This document shows, piece by piece, positions 4,754 to 16,666 of a stretch of 20,867 bases of DNA. Position 1 is the first letter of the stretch. Every line of letters starts with the position of its first letter. The notes under the pieces are model-generated. The model ran no database searches. It was not told where the DNA came from and saw only the letters and a program-made list of their open reading frames with translations. Position numbers and translations under genes: made by a program. The DNA comes from a virus: positions 1 to 20,867 of IMG/VR virus record IMGVR_UViG_3300044623_000161. One strand, written 5' to 3'.

Positions 4754-5138
4754 TGAGGAGTACTGCTCGTAGGAAAGTGGTTGAACCACCGACAGAGGCG
4801 AGGGCACCTGAAGTAACGATACGCATACGAGGCATCGTCTGAATGACCTGTGTGTAGTTCCTTGCTCCATTGGCGGTGCCTACATCAAAGTGACCAACAG
4901 GCATCTTCAATGAGCCAACAGGGACGCTGAGAAGAGTGAACCACTCCACATCATCAACGGTTCCTTGAACCTCAATCGTCGCTGTACCAACCGTTGTCGC
5001 TGTAGTGGTGGAACTAACGAGACTAAGTAGAAGCAATCCAACCGTTGATGAAATTGGGTTGTATGGATGCGTTGGACCGGTGATGCTGCTGTTAGTAGCA
5101 AAGTTGCTAGTTTTAGGCAGGAGATACTTGATTTGCAT
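4746..5138 (-). CDS. Unknown beta-rich virion-like protein, 130 aa
   Basis: I do not recognise a named family. The N-terminal ~35 residues are polar (Asn, Ser, Thr, Pro), then a run of short strands follows: STVGLLLLSLVSSTTTATTVGT is too polar on its right side to be a convincing membrane helix. Next come TIEVQGTVDDVEWFTLLSVP, VGHFDVGTA and MPRMRIVTSGAL. The pattern of an EVQGxxDxxxWFxL strand pair followed by a RMRIVTSG strand resembles small beta-sandwich decoration or head/tail accessory proteins seen in many phages. It sits between the putative holin-like gene (two-base gap) and the small terminase (8-base overlap), where T7 has no equivalent. Structural role is inference; lack of catalytic motifs and of a signal peptide argues against an enzyme or a lysis gene. 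Confidence 0.75.
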   Translation of the reverse strand: MQIKYLLPKTSNFATNSSITGPTHPYNPISSTVGLLLLSLVSSTTTATTVGTATIEVQGTVDDVEWFTLLSVPVGSLKMPVGHFDVGTANGARNYTQVIQTMPRMRIVTSGALASVGGSTTFLRAVLLNG

Positions 5139-5370: not shown

Positions 5371-8300
5371 TTAGGAAATGCGGACGAGCGTGTAATGACC
5401 AGTAGGTGAATAGTTGGTGCCATTAGCGGTACTAGTACCTCTTGGTGGGCCAGCTGATTCAGTAAGGGTGTAGATGTAGCCACTAGTAGCACCCACGGCA
5501 CGCATTTTCCAAGTTCCACCATATCCTGCTTTAATGCGAAGTTGAGGATTTGAGCCCCCACCGACGCTAACGAGAAGATCAGATGTAGGGAAACACCACT
5601 GAGAATCGGGAGCTGTGACATTTGTTTGCCAGCCCATAAATTGAACAGATCCAATTCCGGTCAGCGATGGCGTATAGGGATTTGCCGCTGATTGTTCCCA
5701 AGTTGCATTACCGCTTCCATCACAGGTCAACACCTGCCCTGCCACTGGAGTACCCGAAGTAATCTTCAGTGGTCCATTGATAGTGATCTGATTGGTACTC
5801 GAAGTGGCACCCAAGGTCACCGGGGCAACCGTGGACATCGTTGCGTTCACCGTAAGAGCATCAGCCGCTGCATCACCCACCGTTACATTCCCTTGGAATG
5901 TGTTGGCACCCGTAAAGGTGTTAGTTCCACTAGCGGATACCGTGGGGATCGCTGTGTTCTTGAGTTGACCCGCATCGAAACCAAGGCCGGTACCCAAGGA
6001 GATCTCAGTGACATTTGCGGGACCACTAACCGCAGGGTTTCCCAGTAGACGGTAACCCAACTGTACCTGCTGCATCTTTCCATAGGTGACCTTGTTGTTA
6101 CCAATGGTTGGGGATGGGTAGGAGCTGGTAAGGTCACCTCCTGCAACTCCTAATGGAGAAGCACCGAGCACCTTCAGGGGTGAAGCGGCAGTACCGAGTC
6201 CCTCGAGGCAAGACACACCTAAGTTGTCTATCTGCGTTGTCGTGATAGTGACTGAACTCAGTTTGTTGGCAGCTACACCAGCAGCAGCAACAGCAGTGTT
6301 GTAGGCGTTGGTAGACGCAGTAACCGCATCAGTGACTTGGCCGGTAAGGGTTGTAAGGGCACCTGTAGTGGCAGCACCAATGTTTTCTGGAGTGATGACT
6401 ACGGAACCTGTTTGATTGTTCACCGTTGTAATGACAGGTACCGTCCATACCCCTTGGTTACTCCCATTGCAAGTCAACACCTTGCCATTCGCACCACCCT
6501 GGGGGATGACTAGGGTTCCGCTGACAGTGATGATGTCCGCTGGATCGTTACCAAGGTTTACATTGGCTTGGAATATCTGATTGGCACTGAAGGTCTTTAC
6601 ACCACTGATTGTTTGTGTTGTACCTTTAGTGACACCACCTAAATTACCCGTAGGGCTTGCCTCGCCATCGATACTGACCTTAACGGCACCCGTAAGGCCG
6701 TTGACGGTTGTTACAGGAGCATTGGATGGTGCCGCCCAGGCAACAGTACCAATAGCACCATCTATTGCGGTGCAAGCCATGACACTACCAACGCTAGGGG
6801 TACCTGATCCACTGAACTTTAGTGTTCCTGTGATGGAGATTCCCGTACCAGCATTTTGTCCGATGGTCAGACCACCTGGACTGGAGAAACCTAGACCTGT
6901 TGTCAAGAGTCCTGAGAAGTATGCGTCACCATCAGCCTCGATGAATGAAGTGACACCACCTCCAGGTGCAACACCTTCCCAAACATGATCGTTGTCGTTG
7001 ACCCGTTGTACCTTGACTAGACCCGCTGGCTCAATAGATACGCCGTTAGACCCGTCGGTTCCTACAGCAGTTCCCGATGATGTGACCGTAGGAGCTACTG
7101 TGAACTTCTTCGCAGCAGCTATTGTCTGCGTGGTATTGGTATCTACAGCATTTGTAACTTGGGCTGCTGTGTAATCAGCCGTAGCAGGGGTGACATCACC
7201 AGCACGACCATTGAAGAGGTTGACTCCAACAGCACCATTCAAGGTGGCTGACACTACACCAGTTGATGCGTTGATAGACAGACCACTGCCTATCTTGATA
7301 CCGCCGAGGATGTCAGCAGTCGCTATAGGCAGCGTTGCATTCTGGTTGACACTGACAACACCCGCAGTAACCGATAGACCGCTACCGACCTGCATGATGC
7401 CCTGCTGATTCACCGTAGCAACAGGGATAGTGTTGGCTGTGTATGCACCGAGACCCGCAGCAGTAATTGTCACGGCACCCGTAGCACCGTTTACATTAGA
7501 CACACCCGCCGCTGTGGCGTTCTGCCAGATGACTTGGGTTCCATCACCGGAAGCCATCAGTACTTGACCATTGGTTCCACCAGGGATCCTTAAAGCACCC
7601 CCAACATAGATGATGTCATTGGACGCTGTACCGAGAGTCACGCTGTTCGTGAATACCTTAGCACCATTAATGTCTTGGTTTGTATCAATACTGACTGCTC
7701 CTACATCAGAAGCCGAGAGCGATACGGTAGGTCCTGCTTGGTTGTTGACCGATGTAACACCAGTAGCAGTCGGTGAAACCCATGCTGCTGATCCATCAAC
7801 ATCAAGACAAGTCAGCACCTTCCCGGCGGCCTGATTACCAATGACGAGGTTCAGGTCACTCGTAACAGTCAGGGTATCTGCGGCTGCGTTATCACCAAGC
7901 CCTACGCTCCCTGTGAAGTTCACGGGTCCCGCTACAGTCTGTGTTGCTCCCGTAGCACCCACGGCGATAGCACCAATGGATGCCGGTGTGATGACTACTG
8001 TTCCCGTAGATGGCGAAGCCGCCTCGGATCCCAGCTTGATGCCGTTGACAATCGATGACCACGCCACCGATCCATCATTCGTTGACGAAACAAGTGCTTT
8101 ACCACTGACAGCAGATCCGGTGACCTTCAGTGGAGCGTTGATCTCCACAGCACCCGTAAATGTCTTCTGCCCATCAATGGTCTGAATGCTATCGGTGAGG
8201 ACTACTGTTGCAGGGAGAGAACCAGCGTTAATGGTTGTTTCTTCCCAATGGACATCACCGGATGTACCGTTTGCTCCAAGGACATACTGCTTACCGTCTG

Positions 8301-8811
8301 GAGTCTTGTTAGCAATGATGTCGAGACCCTGTAGAAACTTAAAGGATCCTTCGGCACCAATAGTCGTAGTTCCCGTGAATGTCTTGGATCCCGTAATGGT
8401 CTCAGCGAAATTGATGCTGACCCCTGCTCCACCCTGGTCGAGGAACTGATCCGAGGATTCCTGAGATACATACAGGGAGTTCAGCTGCGACATATCCAGG
8501 TCTGATGCAGTCAGTACATCACCATCGGTAAAGTTGATCACACGGTCAGCCTCACGCGCCGGTGTGAATCGACGGAGCATCACATTGCCTGGTGTTTGAC
8601 CATCTGGCGGAATATCGAAGTGGACATAGGTTGCACCGTTGATGGTCACGAAAGACCAGCCACTCGATATCTGTGTCTGATTCACATACACCCGTACATG
8701 ACTTGGGTCGAGCGGTGCTCCCCCGTAGAAGGTCACCAAGAAGTCATTGGTGCTGCCATTGCCTGAGTAGAAAGTACGGGCGTAGTAGTTCAGTTCATAG
8801 AATGCTGGCAT
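5371..8811 (-). CDS. Tail fibre protein (T7 gp17-like N-terminus, long modular shaft)
   Basis: This 1146-residue fibre is about twice the length of T7 gp17 (553). The N-terminal ~125 residues are the T7 fibre attachment domain: FxVTF, a VMLRRFTP strand, then DRVINFTDGDVLTASDLD, closely paralleling RLVDFTDGSILRAYDLN in T7. It anchors the trimer at the tail nozzle. Residues ~130-1040 are a shaft of repeated modules, including a GGDLTSSYPSPTIGNNKVTY segment typical of phage fibres at 891-910. Residues ~1045-1146 are a distinct Trp/Gly-rich tip (GIGSVQFMGWQTN, GYGGTWKMRAVG, GHYTLVRIS) that probably binds the receptor. The start overlaps the gp16-like stop as TGATG, with GAGGAAA just upstream. I see no C-terminal autoproteolytic chaperone signature. 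Confidence 0.94.
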   Translation of the reverse strand: MPAFYELNYYARTFYSGNGSTNDFLVTFYGGAPLDPSHVRVYVNQTQISSGWSFVTINGATYVHFDIPPDGQTPGNVMLRRFTPAREADRVINFTDGDVLTASDLDMSQLNSLYVSQESSDQFLDQGGAGVSINFAETITGSKTFTGTTTIGAEGSFKFLQGLDIIANKTPDGKQYVLGANGTSGDVHWEETTINAGSLPATVVLTDSIQTIDGQKTFTGAVEINAPLKVTGSAVSGKALVSSTNDGSVAWSSIVNGIKLGSEAASPSTGTVVITPASIGAIAVGATGATQTVAGPVNFTGSVGLGDNAAADTLTVTSDLNLVIGNQAAGKVLTCLDVDGSAAWVSPTATGVTSVNNQAGPTVSLSASDVGAVSIDTNQDINGAKVFTNSVTLGTASNDIIYVGGALRIPGGTNGQVLMASGDGTQVIWQNATAAGVSNVNGATGAVTITAAGLGAYTANTIPVATVNQQGIMQVGSGLSVTAGVVSVNQNATLPIATADILGGIKIGSGLSINASTGVVSATLNGAVGVNLFNGRAGDVTPATADYTAAQVTNAVDTNTTQTIAAAKKFTVAPTVTSSGTAVGTDGSNGVSIEPAGLVKVQRVNDNDHVWEGVAPGGGVTSFIEADGDAYFSGLLTTGLGFSSPGGLTIGQNAGTGISITGTLKFSGSGTPSVGSVMACTAIDGAIGTVAWAAPSNAPVTTVNGLTGAVKVSIDGEASPTGNLGGVTKGTTQTISGVKTFSANQIFQANVNLGNDPADIITVSGTLVIPQGGANGKVLTCNGSNQGVWTVPVITTVNNQTGSVVITPENIGAATTGALTTLTGQVTDAVTASTNAYNTAVAAAGVAANKLSSVTITTTQIDNLGVSCLEGLGTAASPLKVLGASPLGVAGGDLTSSYPSPTIGNNKVTYGKMQQVQLGYRLLGNPAVSGPANVTEISLGTGLGFDAGQLKNTAIPTVSASGTNTFTGANTFQGNVTVGDAAADALTVNATMSTVAPVTLGATSSTNQITINGPLKITSGTPVAGQVLTCDGSGNATWEQSAANPYTPSLTGIGSVQFMGWQTNVTAPDSQWCFPTSDLLVSVGGGSNPQLRIKAGYGGTWKMRAVGATSGYIYTLTESAGPPRGTSTANGTNYSPTGHYTLVRIS
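5692..8424 (-). repeat. Repeated shaft modules in the gp17-like fibre
   Basis: A module of roughly 80-95 residues recurs along the shaft with the order: TQTIxGxKTFTGxVxLG, DxITVxGxLxIP, G(K/Q)VLTCxGxGxxxW, then VTxVNxxTGxVxITxxxIGA. The terminal Trp of the third element occurs at about residues 189, 251, 344, 429, 692, 789 and 1038, giving at least seven copies. The fourth element is clear at 351-372, 436-456, 699-713 and 795-813. The stretch 457-670 is less regular. Copies are diverged at the DNA level, so this is an old expansion rather than a recent tandem array. Confidence 0.8.
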
Positions 8812-11800
8812 CAGTTTCCTCGGTAAAGATTGGCTTTAACATCACGGGCATGAGCCATGGCTTGGGCTAGTTCAGGCGACTCTTTGATTAACTTCTCTAG
8901 GGCAACGCGACGGTAGTCAGATACCTGCCCTCGGATGAGCGATGTGCGGGGACTTGTGATCCCATCGGTTCCCATTTCAGGGAGACCCTTGAAGAACGGT
9001 GATGAGATCACGGAGCGCAGTTGGTCACGCACAGTCTTCCCACCGATCTTCACTTGACCCGTGAGTTCCCCATAGCGGTCATAGGCAGACTGACCGTTCT
9101 TCAACTTGATCTGCTTGAGATCGATGTTGCCTGGGAGGGTTCGACGGGCACCACCGACTGAGATCAATGAATCCGATAGAGCACGGTTCACAGGATCCTT
9201 GGTTGCCCTGGTGGCATTCACGGGGAGAAGAAGAGACCAAGGGCTCTCTGCACCTTGCAGTGGTTCACCAAGAGCATTACGAGTCTTATCCACTGAGACA
9301 CCCGTAAGGGGCAAACGAGCCAAGATGGCATCGACTGCGTTACGGGTTTCATAGATGGTGCTATCAGTAAAGGCTGCCTCAGTCTGTGCCAAGGCGTTCG
9401 GTACAACTGCTCCTGCAAACTGACGCATCATCTTGTTTGCAGCAGCCTCATCACCCATGGCCGCCGACATAGCCGTAGTCAATCCACGCAGGTATGACTT
9501 GGAAGTCACATTGTTCGCAATGGACATCATGGCAGCCTTAGAGATACCCATGATGATCCCGTTGTCCTCAGGGGTTGGGTCATAGGTGCTGCGGCTGATG
9601 TCCACAGTGTCCGCAACGATGCCAAGGAAGGTGGCTACTGGGTCATTGCGTCCAAAGGAGACATACACGCCTCCCACCTTGATGGCATACGGTTGCCAAC
9701 CGGATGCCAGGAGTTGCTTTCGGATGTCGGGATCTACAGGACCCTTGCCCGTGATCATGCCACTCGCTGCTAGACCGATGCCTGTGGTGTACAGGACAGT
9801 TCCGGTAGCCAATCGCCCTGCTGCCTGAGCCACTGCCTTCTGATCACCAGCCTTGGCTGCTTGCACCCAAGCGAGACCCTGACCAATGGGGTTACGGTCT
9901 GTAACGAAGGCGAGTAGGTTCGTAGGGGTCTTGATGAACGGAACAATCAGTTGCAGTTCAGGTACATGACCGACTGCTGTTGAGAACGCCTTGCCGATGT
10001 TGCCTACGAGTCGTGAGCCAAAGGGTGCTGCTTCATCAGCAATATCGGTGTAGTCACGCTTCCAAGTCTGCTCCTTGACTCGACGCTCGATTTCCCCTGA
10101 GACACGCTGAAGGATTCGATAGTCCTCACCGGCGGCCTGTTGCATATTGCCACCAAAGGGAGCCAAGTCGCTATCGACAGTGGCATCCCAATTCTGATCG
10201 ATATATCGTTGGACTTCAGGGATGAATAGAGGATGAGCCTTTGCCCGGGCACCCGAGGCCTCCAAGGCAGACAGGACGGACTTGCGTTCAGCCTCATTAG
10301 GGATAGCCTTGATGGCTTCTCGATCAACCTTACCGGCTTTCATTGAGGCGTTGTAGAGGCGGCTGACCTCAGTGACTACTGCTGGATCAGTTACAGGTTT
10401 CCCTAGGCGATCAGCAACCACGGTACCGAGGGTTTCCCGGAAAGCACCGGGCAGGTACTTATCCCGAGCCTGACGGAACCCACGCTCTTCAACAGTCTTG
10501 CGGGTGTACATCTGACCATCGATGAAGAGGAGATCACGGAGCCTCGCTACCTCTGCTGATACGGCAGCATCAGTAAGAGGCTTGCCCATGCGTGGCGCAA
10601 TATCAGCACGGATAACCGTATCTGCCTCAGACCGGGCAACGATGGTCATAGCGACCTCATCGCTCGCCCCGAGGACTCGCATGGGAGCGTTGACCACTTG
10701 TCCAAAGAAGTCCATTGCAGCACCGGCGGGTGTGCGCTGGACTGCGCCGGTGACATCATCAACCTTGTTAAGCCAAGTAACACCCTTAGATCCAATGCGT
10801 CGCCCAGGTACGAACTCATCACCGTATTGTTGGTTTCCTCTACCGAGAACGAAGGAGTCCCCTTCTTCTGACAGGGAGATCTTCATCGCCTGATAGGCAT
10901 CCGTAGTCTGTGACCAGTACCGCGTGAGTACCGATAGTTCATTCGCTGCGCCCGCTGCATCACCTGACAATGCTTTGCCAGCAGCCCGCTCAAGAGGCAT
11001 TGCCAACATCTGCAAGCCGTTCCATGCATTGACTGCAAGGGTCTTTGGTCCCGACAGGATCGAGTTACGGAACATCTCAACCGTCACACGCATTCCGCTT
11101 CGATAGGAACCTTCTGTGAGTAGTTGGGCAGCGCGGCGGCCTGTCTTGGGATCTAGTAGAAGTAACTGGAGAGTATCCCCCATCATTTCCATACGCACCC
11201 GCTGTTCCGCTGGTGTGAGTGCAAGGAACTGCTTACCTATCGTTTCCGTATCACTAAAGGCTTGAGACATTTGAAGGCTCTTGCCTATGTTTGATTTGAT
11301 CCCCTCGGATGCTCTGAATATCTCAGTAAATGCCCTCAGCGCAGCATCAGAATCTGCTCCTGGCGCACGGATGGCTTGTAGGGCGTTGTAGCGTGATGCT
11401 GCTGTGAGACCTTCGAGGAAGGGCATCATGTCAACCAGCTGTTTAGATGTAACTAACCCACGCTGCATTAACTGAATCCCCTCCGCAGCATTGATCGCAC
11501 CTGTCTCCACAGCAGCCTTAACCGAGGCTATGCCGGTCATACGGTTGATTTCGTTTGTGGCAGGAGTTCCTTTGGCAAACTTATCGGGATTCGCCTCGTA
11601 CTGACGGAGGGCGACGATTGCCTCTTCAAGCATATTGGGAGTAGGTGGTACCCCGGATCTCCCTGGGATCTTCCCAAGAAGTGGTTTCAGATTGATGAGA
11701 CCCTTCTTCTCTAATTCATCGATACGGGCAGCAAGGGCAGCTACATCGGCTCCGCTAGTGTGCAGATCGTGAAGTTCCTTCATCGAAGGTGGGTCATTAA

Positions 11801-13556
11801 CAACAGTCCGCATCCCGTCCACACTCGGAGGCGCAAATGCTGTAGTACCAGCAGCACTCTGCCCATACATACGCTGCTCTGCACGGCGACCTGCACCGAA
11901 GTAGAACTCAGAATCCTTAGCAAGCGCGTAGCGACCGTTGAGCCAATCCTTAGTCAGCTTGTCGTACTTGGCACCACCGAACACCGCCTTGACTTCAGTA
12001 AGAGTGTTCTTGGTGAAGTAGCGGAGGAAGCCAAGTACTGACTTGGTATCTGCTTCAAGAGCGAGGCGCGAGAATGTTGCATCAGTCAATGTCTCTGCAA
12101 CCCACTCATCCATATTGATGAGGCGATACCACTCAGAGACAGGAATCTTCTTATCGAGAACAGCCTTCTTAAATGTCTTGGAGACAGCACCATCTACGGT
12201 TGCCTCGCGGGGACTGATGCCATGCTTATCAAAGAACGCAACATGAGCCTTCTCATAGTCACGCTTCATTGAAGCCAACATGGAATCATCGAGGTACCCA
12301 GTGAGTGAGTGCCACACTTCATGGACGAAGGTTCTCTTGGCATCACCTGTAGTGGTAGCGCGGCGGGCGATGTTGATGACATCCTGCGTGAAGGAGAATG
12401 ATCCATTCTGATTAGGACCTAACTTCCTGAAGCGGATGCCCATGCTCTCAAAGTTGTCTACGCCCATCCGGCGGACAAGAGAGGTCATCATGGTGGCCTC
12501 TTCTTGAGTGATAGAGCCACCCTGTCCTGCCTCACGGTTAATCCGATCCATCATGGCTTCTGCACCACGCTTGACCGGGTACGCAGGATCAGATGTAGAT
12601 GGCTTCTTAGGAGCCGCATCAGCCGCCATGTCATCAACAGCAGAACCTGGTGGGACCTCATCAGCCGAATCAGTCAACGCATCAATGAGCGATGGTTTCG
12701 GGGCAACCTTGGCAGCCACAGCGTCACCCACAGGGGCAACCTCAGGCTGTGCCATCATGGAATCATCTTCAGCCCGACTAGCAGCATCCGCAGCATCCTG
12801 TAGATCCTTACCGGCGACCTGCATGGCACCCTGCACAGCCTCCTCTTCAGACTTACCAGCAGCCCGAAGACGCTTCATCTCCTTGACAGCCTTCATGGAT
12901 CCCTTGATTCCCGCGATGACTCCCTCAAAGGCACCACCAATGATGCCACCCTCAAGGGCGTTCTTTAGGCGACCTTCGAGTTCCGAGTCATTCATGTCGG
13001 TTGCCATGAACTGCGTGAAGGCGTTATTCAGTGCAGGGTTGTCCGCTTGCACCAAGAGGTCAGATAGGCGACCTGCATTGCCCTCGAAGGCAGCGAAGTC
13101 CGTAACGGCACCCTTGACAAAGGTTCCCCGGATAGCAGCCGCAGTACCACCCCCTGCTCCACCCAACCAACCGGCGGTGGCACCTACAGCACCAGGGATC
13201 TTTGAGGCTGCCCCAAGGACACCCCCGGCCGCGAGGAACCCGGTGGCTACCTGCGAGATACCTGACACAATGGAACCAGACCATGATGTGCTGGTGCCCA
13301 GTGGATTCGTGTGCCAATCTGGGAGGAGATCCATGGTTGCCCAATCGGCAAGGTTGTAGACACCCTTGGCAGCATCGATGGCACCACGGGGGACAGCCTT
13401 GATGGTGTCGTAGGTATCCCAGATGGGCTTCGATGGTTCTGCTGCGGGATCAGTAGGTTCCCCGAGATCCGTGGGCATCTGAGGAGATACCTGACCGTTG
13501 ACGATGGCACTAAGCTCATCCTCGTTGAAGTATCTACTATTTGGTGTTGTTGGCAT
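8811..13556 (-). CDS. Internal virion/ejection protein (T7 gp16-like) with metallopeptidase motif
   Basis: The largest protein here (1581 residues; T7 gp16 has 1318) sits between gp15-like and the fibre, the T7 gene 16 place. In T7 this core protein is ejected and forms the channel across the envelope for DNA entry. Residues ~90-145 are Gly/Ala-rich and hydrophobic, followed by NAGRLSDLL. A Pro/Ala/Asp-rich linker covers ~265-325. At ~335-530 lies a zincin-like segment: HEVWH at 412-416 and EWVAE at 484-488. The C-terminal third has VPFIKTPTN at about 1205 and the hydrophobic TGTVLYTTGIGLAASGM with GWQPYAIKVGGVYVSFGR, features I know from large phage ejection proteins. I see nothing resembling the T7 N-terminal transglycosylase. 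Proteolytic activity is an inference from motif only. Confidence 0.9.
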   Translation of the reverse strand: MPTTPNSRYFNEDELSAIVNGQVSPQMPTDLGEPTDPAAEPSKPIWDTYDTIKAVPRGAIDAAKGVYNLADWATMDLLPDWHTNPLGTSTSWSGSIVSGISQVATGFLAAGGVLGAASKIPGAVGATAGWLGGAGGGTAAAIRGTFVKGAVTDFAAFEGNAGRLSDLLVQADNPALNNAFTQFMATDMNDSELEGRLKNALEGGIIGGAFEGVIAGIKGSMKAVKEMKRLRAAGKSEEEAVQGAMQVAGKDLQDAADAASRAEDDSMMAQPEVAPVGDAVAAKVAPKPSLIDALTDSADEVPPGSAVDDMAADAAPKKPSTSDPAYPVKRGAEAMMDRINREAGQGGSITQEEATMMTSLVRRMGVDNFESMGIRFRKLGPNQNGSFSFTQDVINIARRATTTGDAKRTFVHEVWHSLTGYLDDSMLASMKRDYEKAHVAFFDKHGISPREATVDGAVSKTFKKAVLDKKIPVSEWYRLINMDEWVAETLTDATFSRLALEADTKSVLGFLRYFTKNTLTEVKAVFGGAKYDKLTKDWLNGRYALAKDSEFYFGAGRRAEQRMYGQSAAGTTAFAPPSVDGMRTVVNDPPSMKELHDLHTSGADVAALAARIDELEKKGLINLKPLLGKIPGRSGVPPTPNMLEEAIVALRQYEANPDKFAKGTPATNEINRMTGIASVKAAVETGAINAAEGIQLMQRGLVTSKQLVDMMPFLEGLTAASRYNALQAIRAPGADSDAALRAFTEIFRASEGIKSNIGKSLQMSQAFSDTETIGKQFLALTPAEQRVRMEMMGDTLQLLLLDPKTGRRAAQLLTEGSYRSGMRVTVEMFRNSILSGPKTLAVNAWNGLQMLAMPLERAAGKALSGDAAGAANELSVLTRYWSQTTDAYQAMKISLSEEGDSFVLGRGNQQYGDEFVPGRRIGSKGVTWLNKVDDVTGAVQRTPAGAAMDFFGQVVNAPMRVLGASDEVAMTIVARSEADTVIRADIAPRMGKPLTDAAVSAEVARLRDLLFIDGQMYTRKTVEERGFRQARDKYLPGAFRETLGTVVADRLGKPVTDPAVVTEVSRLYNASMKAGKVDREAIKAIPNEAERKSVLSALEASGARAKAHPLFIPEVQRYIDQNWDATVDSDLAPFGGNMQQAAGEDYRILQRVSGEIERRVKEQTWKRDYTDIADEAAPFGSRLVGNIGKAFSTAVGHVPELQLIVPFIKTPTNLLAFVTDRNPIGQGLAWVQAAKAGDQKAVAQAAGRLATGTVLYTTGIGLAASGMITGKGPVDPDIRKQLLASGWQPYAIKVGGVYVSFGRNDPVATFLGIVADTVDISRSTYDPTPEDNGIIMGISKAAMMSIANNVTSKSYLRGLTTAMSAAMGDEAAANKMMRQFAGAVVPNALAQTEAAFTDSTIYETRNAVDAILARLPLTGVSVDKTRNALGEPLQGAESPWSLLLPVNATRATKDPVNRALSDSLISVGGARRTLPGNIDLKQIKLKNGQSAYDRYGELTGQVKIGGKTVRDQLRSVISSPFFKGLPEMGTDGITSPRTSLIRGQVSDYRRVALEKLIKESPELAQAMAHARDVKANLYRGN

Positions 13557-13559
13557 TGA

Positions 13560-15956
13560 TTATTTCGTGAGACTCGGGTTCTTGATGAGGAGCTGCCTCT
13601 TGTACCGAATGAGTTCTGCTTGACGCGCTACGAAGGCTTCTCTGACTTGAGCAGAGAGACCAAGTGCATCCATGACCTTGTTGGTTGTGAGTGGGCTCAT
13701 CAGTTCAAGTTCGTTCTTGAACATAGGCACTGTGAATGCATAGTCAACGGCGGCTTCCTTGTTGGGAAGTACCACGCCGAATACCGGGACACCATCGGAT
13801 GTTTGGTTTGCAATGACTTCTTGCGCTGACAGACCAGCAGTCATAGATCGCTTGACACGGCCATACTGCTGAAGGACTAAGTCAGGTGTGTATTCACGGT
13901 TGGTGTTGAAAAGGACACCTCGGCGCACCACGCCAACCTTGCCTTCCTTCTGTGCGGTAGACCACATATCACCCAGACGCTGTAGGAGTTTGTCTGTGTT
14001 GTAGACAGCACCGAGGTTCATATCCAAAGCAACTTGGTTGATTTGTGCAATCTCGCTCTGGAGGGATGTAACGAAGCCCTCGCTCTGCGCTTCAATTGAT
14101 ATACCCGCTCCCTTTGCTACAGCGAACGCATTGGTAACGGACATCTTCTGTTCCATAGCAACTTCTTCAATGAAGGCTTGGCGAGGTTCAATGACCTTAG
14201 GCTTACCAACGACGATCCCTGCTTCCGTAGCAGACTTCACACCACGCATAGCCTGGTTCTGCTCCTTGACCCTACCGTCGTAGTAGCCATCAAGAATCCC
14301 CACGACTGCTCGGTTGGCAACCTCAACACCCGAGGCAGCCTTGAGATCCCGGTAGGTCATCCCTGAGGTTGCATCGAGTACATCACCACGCACGAATGCT
14401 TTAACGCGTTCGTTAGCACCCGCTCTCCACTCAGTCTCTAGATCATTTGCTTCATCCATCTTGGACGGAGGCAGCATGGGTTGCCCACTGGCATTCCTGC
14501 CGGTAGCCATGTCAGCATCGACATAACTCTGAAGGATCTTTGCGGTGATCCCCTTGCCATTCTGTTGGACATAGGCCGTAGTAGCACCACGCACCACACC
14601 AATATTCTCTTGCCAGTGCCTATCAAGCATCATCTGGCTTTGGATAGGTAGTTTGGTCATGCGGTCACGGAGTAGTCCGCGATCAGGGATTGATCCATCG
14701 TCAATTGCATCCATGATGTCCCGAGTTTCTGCATCAGAAGCAGCGTTTCTCTGCACACCAACGGCAGCAAACAGCGGGCTCAACTTAAGTTGGATTGCTG
14801 AACGCAACCCATCACGGACATCAGGCTTCATATCCGGATTCTTAGTTACATATTCATCGAGGAGCTTCTCTGTGATCTGCTGCGCCTGTTCAGCATTGCC
14901 AGCCATAATGGCTGCACTGACCTTCTCATTCCAACCGAGGGCATAGAGCCCACGGACACCCTGTTGGATGTTCTGGTCAAAGACCCGTTCATTCCGGGTT
15001 GCCTCAGCAGCAATCTCGTTGAGCCGCTGATCCTTGATGGTCAATAGGTTTGAATAGAAGGCAGGGTTCTGATTGATCTGAGCCTTACCAAAGGACAACT
15101 TGCCCATGGCTGACATCATGGTCTCCACTTCAGCCTCATCCTTGGTCTGCGAGATCGCGGTCTCAAAGCCACCCAGGAGAACCTTACGAGCAATCAGCGG
15201 ATCCGTAGTGGTCAAGTGGATACTGTCCACCATCTGCTGCATGGCTACACCCACGGAACCCTTAGAGTCCCATTCATAGCCACTGGCACCAGCAGTCCGT
15301 AGAGCCTCAGCGATACCGTTCTGAGTCTGCTCAACAGCAACGAACTCCTGACGCTTCAGCATCTCCGCTTGGAACTTACTGCTGAACTCAGCGTTGGCTT
15401 CTTGGGCAACCGAGGCAAACCCAGCAGCACCATAGATGTCTGATGTGAAGGCATCCATGCCCACCTTCTCGGCGGCCTGTTTGGCGATCTCAGAGAATGG
15501 CACAGGGTTCGCAGGGTCTGTGGCAGATGCTGAGAGTGACGCTAAAGCGTTCCTGTACTGGAGGCCACCGGATCGCCCAAAGTTCTTACGGGCTTCCATG
15601 AGGAAGAATGGGTTCGCTGAATCAGGTGCATTGTTCTTGACAACGGCTTCCTTGAAGGCGCGGTTGAGGGCGAACTGACGCTCCTCGGGGGTAGCGTTGG
15701 GATCTACATTGAGATCAACCTGGGAGAAGTCAACAGAGGCTCCTTGGATCGCAAGGTTCCGCTTGTCCTCCTCAGCAGCCCGCGCAAGCATTCCTTGGAG
15801 TGATGGGGAGAACCCGGAGAGAGCCTCACCCAATTGCTGTAAGGAGTTACCACGAAGTTGTTGACCTGGTGCCGGGGTGACATTGAGGTTCACCGGCGAG
15901 GCTGAAGGTTGAATGGCGACCTGCGTGAGGTCACGGGGTGTAAGGGATGTTGCCAT
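13560..15956 (-). CDS. Internal virion protein (T7 gp15-like)
   Basis: This protein is placed by synteny and composition: 798 residues (T7 gp15 has 747), between the gp14-like and gp16-like genes. It is a soluble, mostly helical protein with many Gln, Ala and Asp residues, no signal peptide and no membrane helix. In T7, gp15 stacks with gp14 and gp16 in the internal core and forms the periplasmic part of the ejection tunnel. The N-terminus has a Pro-rich segment (VNLNVTPAPGQQLRGN) followed by helices (LQQLGEALSGFSPSLQGML). I chose ATG at 15956, which overlaps the gp14-like stop as TAATG; a GTG five codons earlier (15971) is also possible. The C-terminus is basic and helical. Sequence motifs diagnostic of gp15 are not obvious to me, so the assignment leans on gene order. 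Confidence 0.85.
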   Translation of the reverse strand: MATSLTPRDLTQVAIQPSASPVNLNVTPAPGQQLRGNSLQQLGEALSGFSPSLQGMLARAAEEDKRNLAIQGASVDFSQVDLNVDPNATPEERQFALNRAFKEAVVKNNAPDSANPFFLMEARKNFGRSGGLQYRNALASLSASATDPANPVPFSEIAKQAAEKVGMDAFTSDIYGAAGFASVAQEANAEFSSKFQAEMLKRQEFVAVEQTQNGIAEALRTAGASGYEWDSKGSVGVAMQQMVDSIHLTTTDPLIARKVLLGGFETAISQTKDEAEVETMMSAMGKLSFGKAQINQNPAFYSNLLTIKDQRLNEIAAEATRNERVFDQNIQQGVRGLYALGWNEKVSAAIMAGNAEQAQQITEKLLDEYVTKNPDMKPDVRDGLRSAIQLKLSPLFAAVGVQRNAASDAETRDIMDAIDDGSIPDRGLLRDRMTKLPIQSQMMLDRHWQENIGVVRGATTAYVQQNGKGITAKILQSYVDADMATGRNASGQPMLPPSKMDEANDLETEWRAGANERVKAFVRGDVLDATSGMTYRDLKAASGVEVANRAVVGILDGYYDGRVKEQNQAMRGVKSATEAGIVVGKPKVIEPRQAFIEEVAMEQKMSVTNAFAVAKGAGISIEAQSEGFVTSLQSEIAQINQVALDMNLGAVYNTDKLLQRLGDMWSTAQKEGKVGVVRRGVLFNTNREYTPDLVLQQYGRVKRSMTAGLSAQEVIANQTSDGVPVFGVVLPNKEAAVDYAFTVPMFKNELELMSPLTTNKVMDALGLSAQVREAFVARQAELIRYKRQLLIKNPSLTK

Positions 15957-16666
15957 TATCGGTTGTACCACCCACGGCTAGTCATGCGTACTGAGGTTGG
16001 GATAGATCCCATGAAAGCTTCGCGACGAGCGAGTGTTGAGTAGTTGGCTGAAGGTGCTGACTCACTGCCCCAGCCCATTCGATCTGGATTGCCATACTGA
16101 TTTACTGCGCCGATCACACTTCCACCTACCTGAAGAGCAGGAACAAACGGACTCGGTGCGGTAGTCGTTGGGTAGGAACGGATCATGACTCCATCGGCTT
16201 GCCCCTGCATACCGAGTTGTTCAATCATCAGTTGGCGACTACGGAAGTCGTAGTTGAGGTTGACATTGGCGATGGATTCATTCTGTTGACGGGTGAACTC
16301 GTTCATTAACATATTGACGGAGTTGCCCTGGATACCTGCTTCACCCGTAGTGGTACGAATGGAACCAAAGGCAGTCTCTGCTTCCTGACGGATCTGCTGA
16401 ACCTGTTGAGCCTTACTGATCTGCTCCTCACGCTGACGGACACCTACCTGCTGATATTGGAGTTGCAGGTTCTCTTGGGCAAGACGCTGCCCTTCTTCGT
16501 ACTGGTACTTCTGTGAGTCAGCCGCTTGCTTCTGACCGGCATAGGACACACCGGCACTCGCTGCTGTTGCTGCCACCGATAGCACTGCCATGGTTCCAGC
16601 AGCAGCAGCTGCTGCCTCTGATGCTCCAAGAGCAATACCAATGGGTGCTAGGAATGGAATACACAT
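15956..16666 (-). CDS. Internal virion protein (T7 gp14-like)
   Basis: The 236-residue protein (T7 gp14 has 196) occupies the gene 14 place. Residues ~5-45 are a hydrophobic Ala/Gly-rich stretch (LAPIGIALGASEAAAAAAG, then TMAVLSVAATAASAGVSYAG), followed by a long Gln/Glu-rich helix of about 80 residues (QKQAADSQKYQYEEGQRLAQ and on) that could form a coiled coil. GSIRTTTGEAGIQGNSV at about 100-116 and NESIANVNLNYDFRSRQL after it match the pattern I know from internal core proteins of T7-like and cyanophage podoviruses. In T7 gp14 is ejected first and forms a pore in the outer membrane, consistent with the hydrophobic N-terminus. The C-terminus is polar and ends RGWYNR. It follows the gp13-like gene after a three-base gap. 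Confidence 0.88.
   Translation of the reverse strand: MCIPFLAPIGIALGASEAAAAAAGTMAVLSVAATAASAGVSYAGQKQAADSQKYQYEEGQRLAQENLQLQYQQVGVRQREEQISKAQQVQQIRQEAETAFGSIRTTTGEAGIQGNSVNMLMNEFTRQQNESIANVNLNYDFRSRQLMIEQLGMQGQADGVMIRSYPTTTAPSPFVPALQVGGSVIGAVNQYGNPDRMGWGSESAPSANYSTLARREAFMGSIPTSVRMTSRGWYNR

What the first reader, a model, noticed from the sequence alone, without database searches (positions are those of the whole stretch)
12090..12325. Metallopeptidase signature inside the gp16-like ejection protein
The protein reads FVHEVWHSL at 411-419 (HExxH at 12309-12323) after a strand-like VINIARRATTTGDAKRTF, and 68 residues later MDEWVAE (E484, E488; codons at 12105-12107 and 12093-12095). HExxH plus a downstream ExxAE is the arrangement of gluzincin-type peptidases; in anthrax lethal factor the third zinc ligand is the first Glu of EFFAE, so E484 is the likely equivalent. 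T7 gp16 carries a lytic transglycosylase near its N-terminus, and I see no such motif here. The phage may use a protease, delivered with the particle, to open the cell envelope, process virion proteins or attack host proteins on entry.
Basis: partly seen in the sequence, partly recalled or inferred. Interest (0 to 1): 0.75.

Follow-up and report, generated by a model that had tools for sequence, protein, structure and literature searches.

The report
Swappable protease domain in phage injector
A T7-like virus of bacteria appears to carry a zinc protease of the lethal-factor/Pro-Pro-endopeptidase type inside the giant protein it injects with its DNA, and some close relatives swap or lack this segment as a unit, which suggests an accessory weapon rather than a fixed structural part.

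Summary
The motif is real and is part of a protein domain. Residues 326-552 of the 1,581-aa gp16-like ejection protein form a predicted zincin. In a 44-row alignment with relatives down to 16% identity, only six columns never vary: H412, E413, W415, H416, Y477 and E484. Five are the catalytic set of lethal factor and Pro-Pro endopeptidases; Tyr lies 7 residues before the Glu in 44 of 44 rows, while the H416-E484 spacing runs from 53 to 117. E488 is not invariant, so the "ExxAE" half of the claim fails. AlphaFold gives a confident zincin-like model (pLDDT 87.9). Profile comparison links it to zincin regions in cultured T7-like internal virion proteins (including P. putida KT2440 phages) and, more weakly, in the ejected N4 RNA polymerase. 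It is thus a new subfamily of the "MPTase" domain of phage polyvalent proteins (2017). New here: it behaves as an exchangeable cassette. One pair of near-identical phages differs to 29-64% identity across residues ~241-600, and three near relatives lack it cleanly. I favour a co-injected accessory protease, most likely with a host target; self-processing is the main rival. Zinc binding, activity and substrate are untested.

The parts
8811..13556 (-). gp16-like ejection protein (internal virion protein D), 1,581 aa
   Evidence: ORF; PHROG phrog_6651 internal virion protein E 8.7e-42; 61 of 50,697 phage records match, most of the rows listed over the C-terminal ~400 aa only
11901..12593 (-). zincin (MPTase-type) metallopeptidase domain as modelled, aa 322-552
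   Evidence: alignment A6, AlphaFold2 pLDDT 87.9 pTM 0.86, fold searches, profile-profile matches
12309..12323 (-). HEVWH, aa 412-416: H412 and H416 zinc ligands, E413 general base (inferred)
   Evidence: invariant 34/34 non-redundant copies, 44/44 rows
12126..12128 (-). Y477, counterpart of the catalytic Tyr of lethal factor (Y728) and PPEP-3 (Y190)
   Evidence: invariant 34/34, 7 residues before E484 in 44/44 rows; same spacing in the two known enzymes
12105..12107 (-). E484, third zinc ligand (inferred), near the start of the next long helix
   Evidence: invariant 34/34, 44/44; helix 161-184 of the model, E484 = model residue 163
11757..12836 (-). approximate exchangeable block, aa ~241-600 (boundaries read from L007 numbering, which agrees with the window at both ends)
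   Evidence: L007 vs L041: 97-100% identical before, 72-100% after, 29-64% inside, in 60-residue windows; DNA; window vs L024/L020 diverge over a similar, longer block
11832..12620 (-). segment absent in domain-less alleles, aa 313-575
   Evidence: alignment with L020 and L024; L019 start printed, segments compared
13560..15971 (-). gp15-position internal virion protein (by gene order only)
   Evidence: ORF; no convincing family match
15956..16666 (-). gp14-like internal virion protein
   Evidence: Pfam T7_gp14 E 1.9e-22, phrog_805

Best explanation
Residues ~326-552 of this T7-like phage's gp16-like ejection protein are a catalytically competent gluzincin peptidase. H412, H416 and E484 bind zinc, E413 activates the water and Y477 stabilises the transition state, as in lethal factor and Pro-Pro endopeptidases. 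It is a new subfamily of the zincin 'MPTase' domains of phage polyvalent proteins. The protein is packaged in the head and ejected with the DNA (established for T7 gp16, inferred here), so the protease reaches the new host in the first moments of infection. It sits in an exchangeable cassette that phages replace with divergent alleles or lose, so I infer an accessory, probably host-directed activity (cleaving a host protein, perhaps of defence, envelope or regulation) rather than a fixed step of virion assembly. Shown: conserved domain, fold prediction, invariant catalytic set, remote homology, one clear allele exchange and three domain-less alleles. Inferred: zinc, proteolysis, delivery, host target.
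For: Six invariant columns in 44 rows are H412 E413 W415 H416 Y477 E484, five of which equal the published catalytic sets of lethal factor and PPEP-3, with the Tyr-Glu spacing of 7 in 44/44 while H416-E484 runs 53-117. Retrieval bias checked: 16 non-redundant copies that carry only the E484 search motif all keep HExWH, 6 that carry only the HExWH search motif all keep E484. Model pLDDT 87.9, with Y477 and E484 on successive helices as in PPEP-3; best matches are zincins and phage giant proteins. Profile-profile: cultured T7-like internal virion protein set prob 90.3, P 1.5e-6, score 50.9 against a maximum of 19.3 in 100 column shuffles; N4 vRNAP domain prob 79.5, P 1.5e-5, score 45.2 against 25.9. 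Cassette: L007/L041; domain-less L019, L020, L024, and no copy elsewhere in the 41.2-kb and 16.7-kb records of L024 and L020, which may be fragments. Relatives join the domain to an ADP-ribosyltransferase (L047) or to helicase and other metallopeptidase motifs (L073).
Against: No zinc, activity, cleavage or ejection data. The first AlphaFold job on a shallower alignment was poor (pLDDT 54.6). No Foldseek hit in PDB passes E 0.001 (best 9.9e-3), and Z 7.6 lies in the range that unrelated models can reach (notes). No Pfam or NCBIfam peptidase family is matched. Cassette exchange shows recombination, not a host target; only one pair shows a strong swap (3 of 43 pairs with similar C-terminal parts pass the loose filter). 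The tree allows loss plus regain or several losses, and the presence/absence labels are not clustered beyond shuffles (62-67 of 500 as low).
Confidence: 0.5

Rival explanations
1. Self-processing: the domain cuts its own gp16 (or gp14/gp15) in the capsid or after ejection, releasing parts of the giant protein, as Iyer et al. proposed for polyvalent proteins.
For: Proposed for MPTase domains generally (passages); relatives combine it with other enzymes in one chain (L047; L073).
Against: Natural gp16 alleles with 94-100% identity in the N-terminal 240 residues (L020, L024) and 94-95% in the C-terminal part (L019, L020, L024) lack the domain, so cutting by it cannot be needed in those phages; the 2017 paper states that the N4 polymerase is packaged unprocessed; no other enzyme was recognised in the window protein that would need release.
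Confidence: 0.27
2. Envelope entry enzyme: the protease acts in the periplasm on peptidoglycan peptides or envelope proteins and helps the ejectosome cross, partly replacing the T7 transglycosylase.
For: No transglycosylase recognised by Pfam in the gp13-gp16 position proteins; gp16 N-terminal parts are periplasmic in T7 (passages of PMC8954989); PPEPs act outside the cell (passages).
Against: Counterparts seem to coexist with muralytic regions: L047 has a 53-residue endolysin PHROG match, Burkholderia phage Paku's protein is annotated lytic transglycosylase with a Pfam note, and many cultured records are annotated 'with endolysin domain'. That last annotation is weak evidence: Pfam found nothing in the Kompost-1 protein. 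Domain-less L020 and L024 have no insertion in place of the missing segment.
Confidence: 0.15
3. Inactive zincin-like scaffold: the fold is kept for gp16 structure or packaging, without catalysis.
For: No activity was shown for an N4-type phage MPTase in the passages read; the 2017 paper says the N4 region with the MPTase is needed for encapsidation.
Against: Five catalytic residues are invariant while the rest diverges to 16% identity, which fits catalysis; domain-less alleles exist.
Confidence: 0.07
4. Chance HExxH in a helical ejection protein.
For: T7 gp16 has such a chance motif, HERLH at 559.
Against: Conservation, fold and profile evidence.
Confidence: 0.01

Closest known systems
MPTase (zincin-like metallopeptidase) domain of phage polyvalent proteins, incl. 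N4 virion RNA polymerase C1 domain (Iyer et al. 2017, PMC5512222; N4 structure preprint PMC12633501; PDB 9pnr and others)
   Same: HExxH helix, Glu on a later helix, variable insert between them, position inside a giant virion protein; profile-profile P 1.5e-5
   Different: The nine N4-type sequences lack the invariant Tyr 7 residues before the Glu; the carrier is a T7-gp16-like ejection protein, not an RNA polymerase; no Pfam, PHROG or NCBIfam family recognises this branch
Metallopeptidase region of internal virion protein D in cultured T7-like phages (Bordetella BB8, P. putida vB_PpuP phages, Achromobacter, Burkholderia Paku); recognised here, annotated as internal virion protein, endolysin, transglycosylase or hypothetical
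   Same: Same protein class, HExxH and Tyr-x6-Glu in register
   Different: Too far for tblastn: the 40 records found with BB8 are not found with the window domain; no Trp in HExxH
Pro-Pro endopeptidases (PPEP-1/2/3)
   Same: H-E-H-Tyr-Glu set with Tyr 7 before Glu on successive helices in PPEP-3; structural match Z 6.5, rmsd 4.0, 144 residues
   Different: Secreted bacterial enzymes; no sequence match found; longer insert here; specificity unknown
Lethal factor catalytic domain
   Same: H-E-H-Tyr-Glu set with the same Tyr-Glu spacing; Z 7.6, rmsd 4.0, 143 residues
   Different: No sequence match found; different delivery, host kingdom and surrounding domains

Membership tests
Gluzincin-type zincin metallopeptidases | HExxH on a helix behind a small beta sheet | tested here: met
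   Strands 52-56, 64-67, 72-76 then helix 85-100 carrying HEVWH
Gluzincin-type zincin metallopeptidases | Conserved downstream Glu ligand on another helix | tested here: met
   E484 invariant 34/34, on helix 161-184; conservation and helix tested, distance to zinc not
Gluzincin-type zincin metallopeptidases | Zinc binding and proteolysis | not testable with these tools
   needs protein
Lethal factor / Pro-Pro endopeptidase type | Catalytic Tyr 7 residues before the Glu ligand | tested here: met
   Y477-E484, 44/44 rows against LF Y728/E735 and PPEP-3 Y190/E197
Lethal factor / Pro-Pro endopeptidase type | Match to a curated peptidase family profile | tested here: not met
   No Pfam or NCBIfam peptidase family at its cut-off; so 'works like', not 'is a member'
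Lethal factor / Pro-Pro endopeptidase type | Fold similarity clearly above unrelated proteins | tested here: inconclusive
   Best Z 7.6, in the range unrelated models can reach
MPTase domain of phage polyvalent proteins | Homology to the founding N4 vRNAP domain | tested here: met
   hhalign prob 79.5, P 1.5e-5; score 45.2 vs max 25.9 in 100 shuffles
MPTase domain of phage polyvalent proteins | Lies in a large protein encoded among virion genes | tested here: met
   1,581-aa protein between gp15-position and tail fibre genes
MPTase domain of phage polyvalent proteins | Several unrelated enzymatic domains in one chain | tested here: not met
   Window protein: only this enzyme recognised. Met in relatives L047 and L073. 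So the domain belongs to the kind; the window protein is not itself a clear polyvalent protein
T7 gp16-like internal virion protein D | C-terminal region homologous to internal virion protein D and T7-like gene order | tested here: met
   phrog_6651 E 8.7e-42, tblastn to records annotated internal virion protein D, T7-type terminase and tail fibre
T7 gp16-like internal virion protein D | N-terminal transglycosylase domain as in T7 | tested here: not met
   No Pfam transglycosylase at E <= 1 (no positive control run); the review says this domain is not present in all gp16-like proteins

The most novel reading that the evidence does not exclude
T7-like phages carry an interchangeable protease warhead in the ejection protein that forms their DNA tunnel. 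It is injected ahead of any phage gene expression, cleaves a host (possibly defence) protein, and is replaced or dropped as hosts change; bacterial enzymes such as Pro-Pro endopeptidases and lethal factor would share its catalytic plan because the fold circulates in phage injected proteins.
Probability: 0.35. Interest if true: 0.8.

Novelty: new variant of a known kind. Interest (0 to 1): 0.58.

Why it matters
Ejection proteins are usually discussed as tunnel parts, with a cell-wall enzyme at most. If some carry swappable proteases, the first minutes of infection include proteolysis by a pre-made enzyme, and the target could be found. The finding also makes a 2017 prediction directly testable in a laboratory system, because cultured phages of Pseudomonas putida KT2440 carry a related region in the same protein.

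Tried and rejected
First AlphaFold job on 24 rows gave pLDDT 54.6 and was not used. The E488/'ExxAE' idea was dropped (28 of 34). I considered that T7 gp16 itself holds a cryptic copy because of HERLH at 559; hmmsearch with three profiles at E up to 10 and hhalign against its residues 441-760 find nothing. Pfam, PHROGs and NCBIfam give no family for the domain. Two scans of bacterial and archaeal genome contigs confirmed no relative. tblastn of five domain copies (window, L011, L145, L136, L126) against 50,697 phage records and of the window domain against 72,556 plasmid records gave none. PDB sequence searches gave nothing convincing (none; one hit at E 1.4; twelve, best E 0.21, IrrE 0.31). 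The N4 structure did not appear among the 50 fold rows shown; absence there excludes nothing. Paper searches with 'internal virion protein' plus HExxH, or plus podovirus and metallopeptidase, gave 0; a wider one (20 of 103 papers listed, titles and abstract starts seen) showed only the N4 preprint as relevant to a protease in an ejected phage protein. The library is open-licence only, so a description elsewhere is possible. The names minigluzincin and general base for the phage residues are recalled, not from a call.

Row bookkeeping: one search returned 59 loci; I examined 50 of them plus L043 and left out nine (L111, L113, L008, L114, L116, L118, L120, L122, L124) as repeats of listed ones by their scores and coordinates. 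All 51 examined had an HExxH in the matched region. The 34 non-redundant copies come from these 51 plus the window at a 92% identity cut. The 44 rows of A6 add ten near-repeats, one of them a second piece of L138, so 44 is not a count of independent sequences. The first profile test used 24 rows (A3) and was weaker (P 1.7e-4; six shuffles 12.0-14.5, reversed 20.1). In the cassette tree two fragments (L021, L022) start after the segment and were not labelled.
Full report
OBSERVATION. The minus-strand ORF 8811-13556 encodes 1,581 aa with HEVWH at 412-416 and DEWVAE at 483-488 at the stated coordinates. Its composition predicts 0.0033 HExxH by chance. The gene lies in a T7-like late block read on the minus strand: a capsid-position ORF at the window edge (not searched), tail proteins (phrog_446, phrog_457), a phrog_308 internal virion protein, gp14-like, gp15-position, this protein, a T7-type tail fibre and a T7-type terminase. 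The protein matches phrog_6651 'internal virion protein' (E 8.7e-42) and 61 of 50,697 phage records, most listed rows over the C-terminal 400 residues only. The window is a 20,867-base virus record.

THE DOMAIN FAMILY. Scans of IMG/VR found the domain in giant proteins, from near-identical copies to about 16% identity. Of eleven carriers scanned with PHROGs, six match the internal virion protein family phrog_6651 (window, L047, L107, L127, L140, L145), one matches phrog_342, 'internal virion protein with endolysin domain' (L011), and four match neither (L075, L080, L126, L136). Of 34 non-redundant copies, 34 keep H412, E413, W415, H416, Y477 and E484; D483 is kept in 30 and E488 in 28. Because the last scan used two short motifs, I separated copies by the motif they carry: 16 with only the DEW/Y motif all have HExWH, and 6 with only the strict HExWH motif all have E484. 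In the 44-row alignment A6 those six columns are the only invariant ones; Y477 and E484 are 7 apart in 44 of 44 rows, while H416 to E484 spans 53-117 residues. The 44 rows include ten near-repeats.

CATALYTIC PLAN. Lethal factor's catalytic residues are H686, E687, H690, Y728 and E735 (figure legend of PMC10614799; text passage of PMC3496994). Pro-Pro endopeptidase 3 has H153, E154, H157, Y190 on helix 6 and E197 on helix 7 (passages of PMC12828418). In both, Tyr precedes the Glu ligand by 7. The window protein has H412, E413, H416, Y477, E484.

FOLD. With 44 rows AlphaFold2 gives pLDDT 87.9 and pTM 0.86: helices, three strands, the HExxH helix, a long helix, a variable insert, a short helix with Y477 and a long helix with E484; Tyr and Glu sit on successive helices as in PPEP-3. 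An earlier job with 24 rows failed (pLDDT 54.6). Foldseek's best PDB matches are jannalysin and selecase (E 9.9e-3, probability 1.00), then PprI/IrrE and M1 peptidases; none passes E 0.001. VIA-align's highest rows include lethal factor (Z 7.6, rmsd 4.0, 143 residues), PPEP-3 (6.5), selecase (6.3), a putative metal-dependent hydrolase (6.2) and IrrE (6.1); its note warns that Z under 8 can be reached by unrelated folds, so I rely on the agreement of the top rows and on the residues, not on Z. In the viral library two matches pass 0.001, both uncharacterised proteins of uncultured phages (E 4.2e-5, TM 0.64 over the query; E 8.5e-5, TM 0.45), followed by 'large polyvalent protein' entries, a crAss-like 'zincin protease' (E 6.1e-3) and, at E 0.05, internal protein D of Bordetella phage BB8. 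I could not measure ligand distances.

HOMOLOGY. BB8's internal protein D (1,551 aa) has HEISH at 577 in a similar setting, and an HMM of A6 finds it (E 2.3e-5 in a three-sequence target) while T7 gp16 is not found. tblastn with its region finds 40 of 50,697 phage records, 25 of them on P. putida KT2440/Paw85, in genes annotated internal virion protein (with or without 'endolysin domain'), transglycosylase or hypothetical. The nine members aligned keep HExxH and Tyr-x6-Glu. hhalign of A6 against this set gives probability 90.3, P 1.5e-6, score 50.9, with HExxH, Tyr and Glu in register; 100 column-shuffled versions reach at most 19.3. Against nine N4-vRNAP C1 domains (A4) it gives probability 79.5, P 1.5e-5, score 45.2 against at most 25.9; the printed alignment covers only the Glu helix. 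With the earlier 24-row alignment a wide alignment placed HExxH in register too, and the N-terminal halves alone gave P 1.4e-5. The N4-type sequences lack the Tyr.

KNOWN KIND. Iyer et al. 2017 (PMC5512222; passages read) named polyvalent proteins, injected multidomain proteins of phages and conjugative elements. They found zincin-like MPTase domains to be their commonest domain, including in N4 vRNAP, noted the kinship with lethal factor and variable inserts, and proposed self-processing or action after injection. The main text has no occurrence of 'gp16' or 'internal virion protein'. A 2025 preprint on the N4 polymerase structure (PMC12633501; passages) mentions the HExxH without an activity in what I read.

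CASSETTE. In 60-residue windows L007 and L041 are 97-100% identical over aa 1-240 and 72-100% identical after aa 600, but 29-64% identical in aa 241-600. At DNA level 97.3% identity over 4.0 kb stops at L007:3995 and 93.7% resumes at 4978, with one 230-base piece at 74% between. Both alleles keep the catalytic set (as L109 and L119). Of 76 comparable pairs, 43 are over 90% identical in the C-terminal part and 3 of those have a domain under 85% identical; only this pair is dramatic (51%), the others are 82-83%; none of the 76 shows the reverse pattern as I defined it. Separately, three near relatives (L019, L020, L024) lack aa 313-575, while their C-terminal part is 94-95% identical to the window and, in L020 and L024, the N-terminal 240 residues 94-100%. 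The 41.2-kb and 16.7-kb records of L024 and L020 hold no copy elsewhere, though they may be fragments. Around the gap, aa 245-325 and 553-830 are only 50-65% identical in these three, so the change looks like a block replacement rather than a simple deletion. A tree of the C-terminal part needs two changes; domain-bearing proteins form the outgroups (midpoint root); shuffled labels reach as few changes in 62-67 of 500. This fits loss and regain by recombination or repeated loss.

FUNCTION. The invariant set speaks for an active peptidase. Tolerated loss and allele replacement speak against a fixed essential step and for an accessory target that differs between hosts or phages; this step is inference. 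In relatives the domain travels with an ADP-ribosyltransferase and a short endolysin match (L047) or with helicase parts and further HExxH motifs (L073), companions typical of injected effectors. T7 gp16 is ejected and spans periplasm, membrane and cytoplasm (review PMC8954989, passages); on which side this domain ends up is unknown, and a simple hydropathy scan shows a single weak hydrophobic stretch at aa 96-114. I put the zincin fold with a complete catalytic set at about 0.93, an active peptidase at about 0.8 and the accessory host-directed role at about 0.5.

Noticed in passing
L164:10453-15108; PP496469.1 and 38 other records: Cultured T7-like phages (25 on P. putida KT2440) have a zincin region, not annotated as such in the rows shown, in internal virion protein D (40 of 50,697 records).
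   Followed up: yes
L047:3853-11664: 2,604-aa internal virion protein with ADP-ribosyltransferase (ART-PolyVal), a second HExxH (HELAH, aa 343), the window-type zincin and a 53-residue endolysin match.
   Followed up: partly
L073:2-12964: Protein of at least 4,321 aa with helicase parts, a weak DUF6782 metallopeptidase match below its cut-off, LPD23 and three HExxH motifs.
   Followed up: partly
window aa 184-408 of gp16 (12333-13007): Match to the PHROG of N4 virion RNA polymerase (phrog_2206, E 1.1e-5) at profile 376-595 of 3406, which by position is not its zincin part; unexplained.
   Followed up: no
window 5390-7784: Tail-fibre region is patchily matched to L017 (pieces at 80-92%, none at 5390-5625) though the genes around it are 96-99% identical; L024 is also broken there but has one piece at 93.7%. 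Looks like a host-range module.
   Followed up: no
L173 (T7 gp16, aa 559): T7 gp16 has HERLH with no zincin context found: a chance HExxH.
   Followed up: yes
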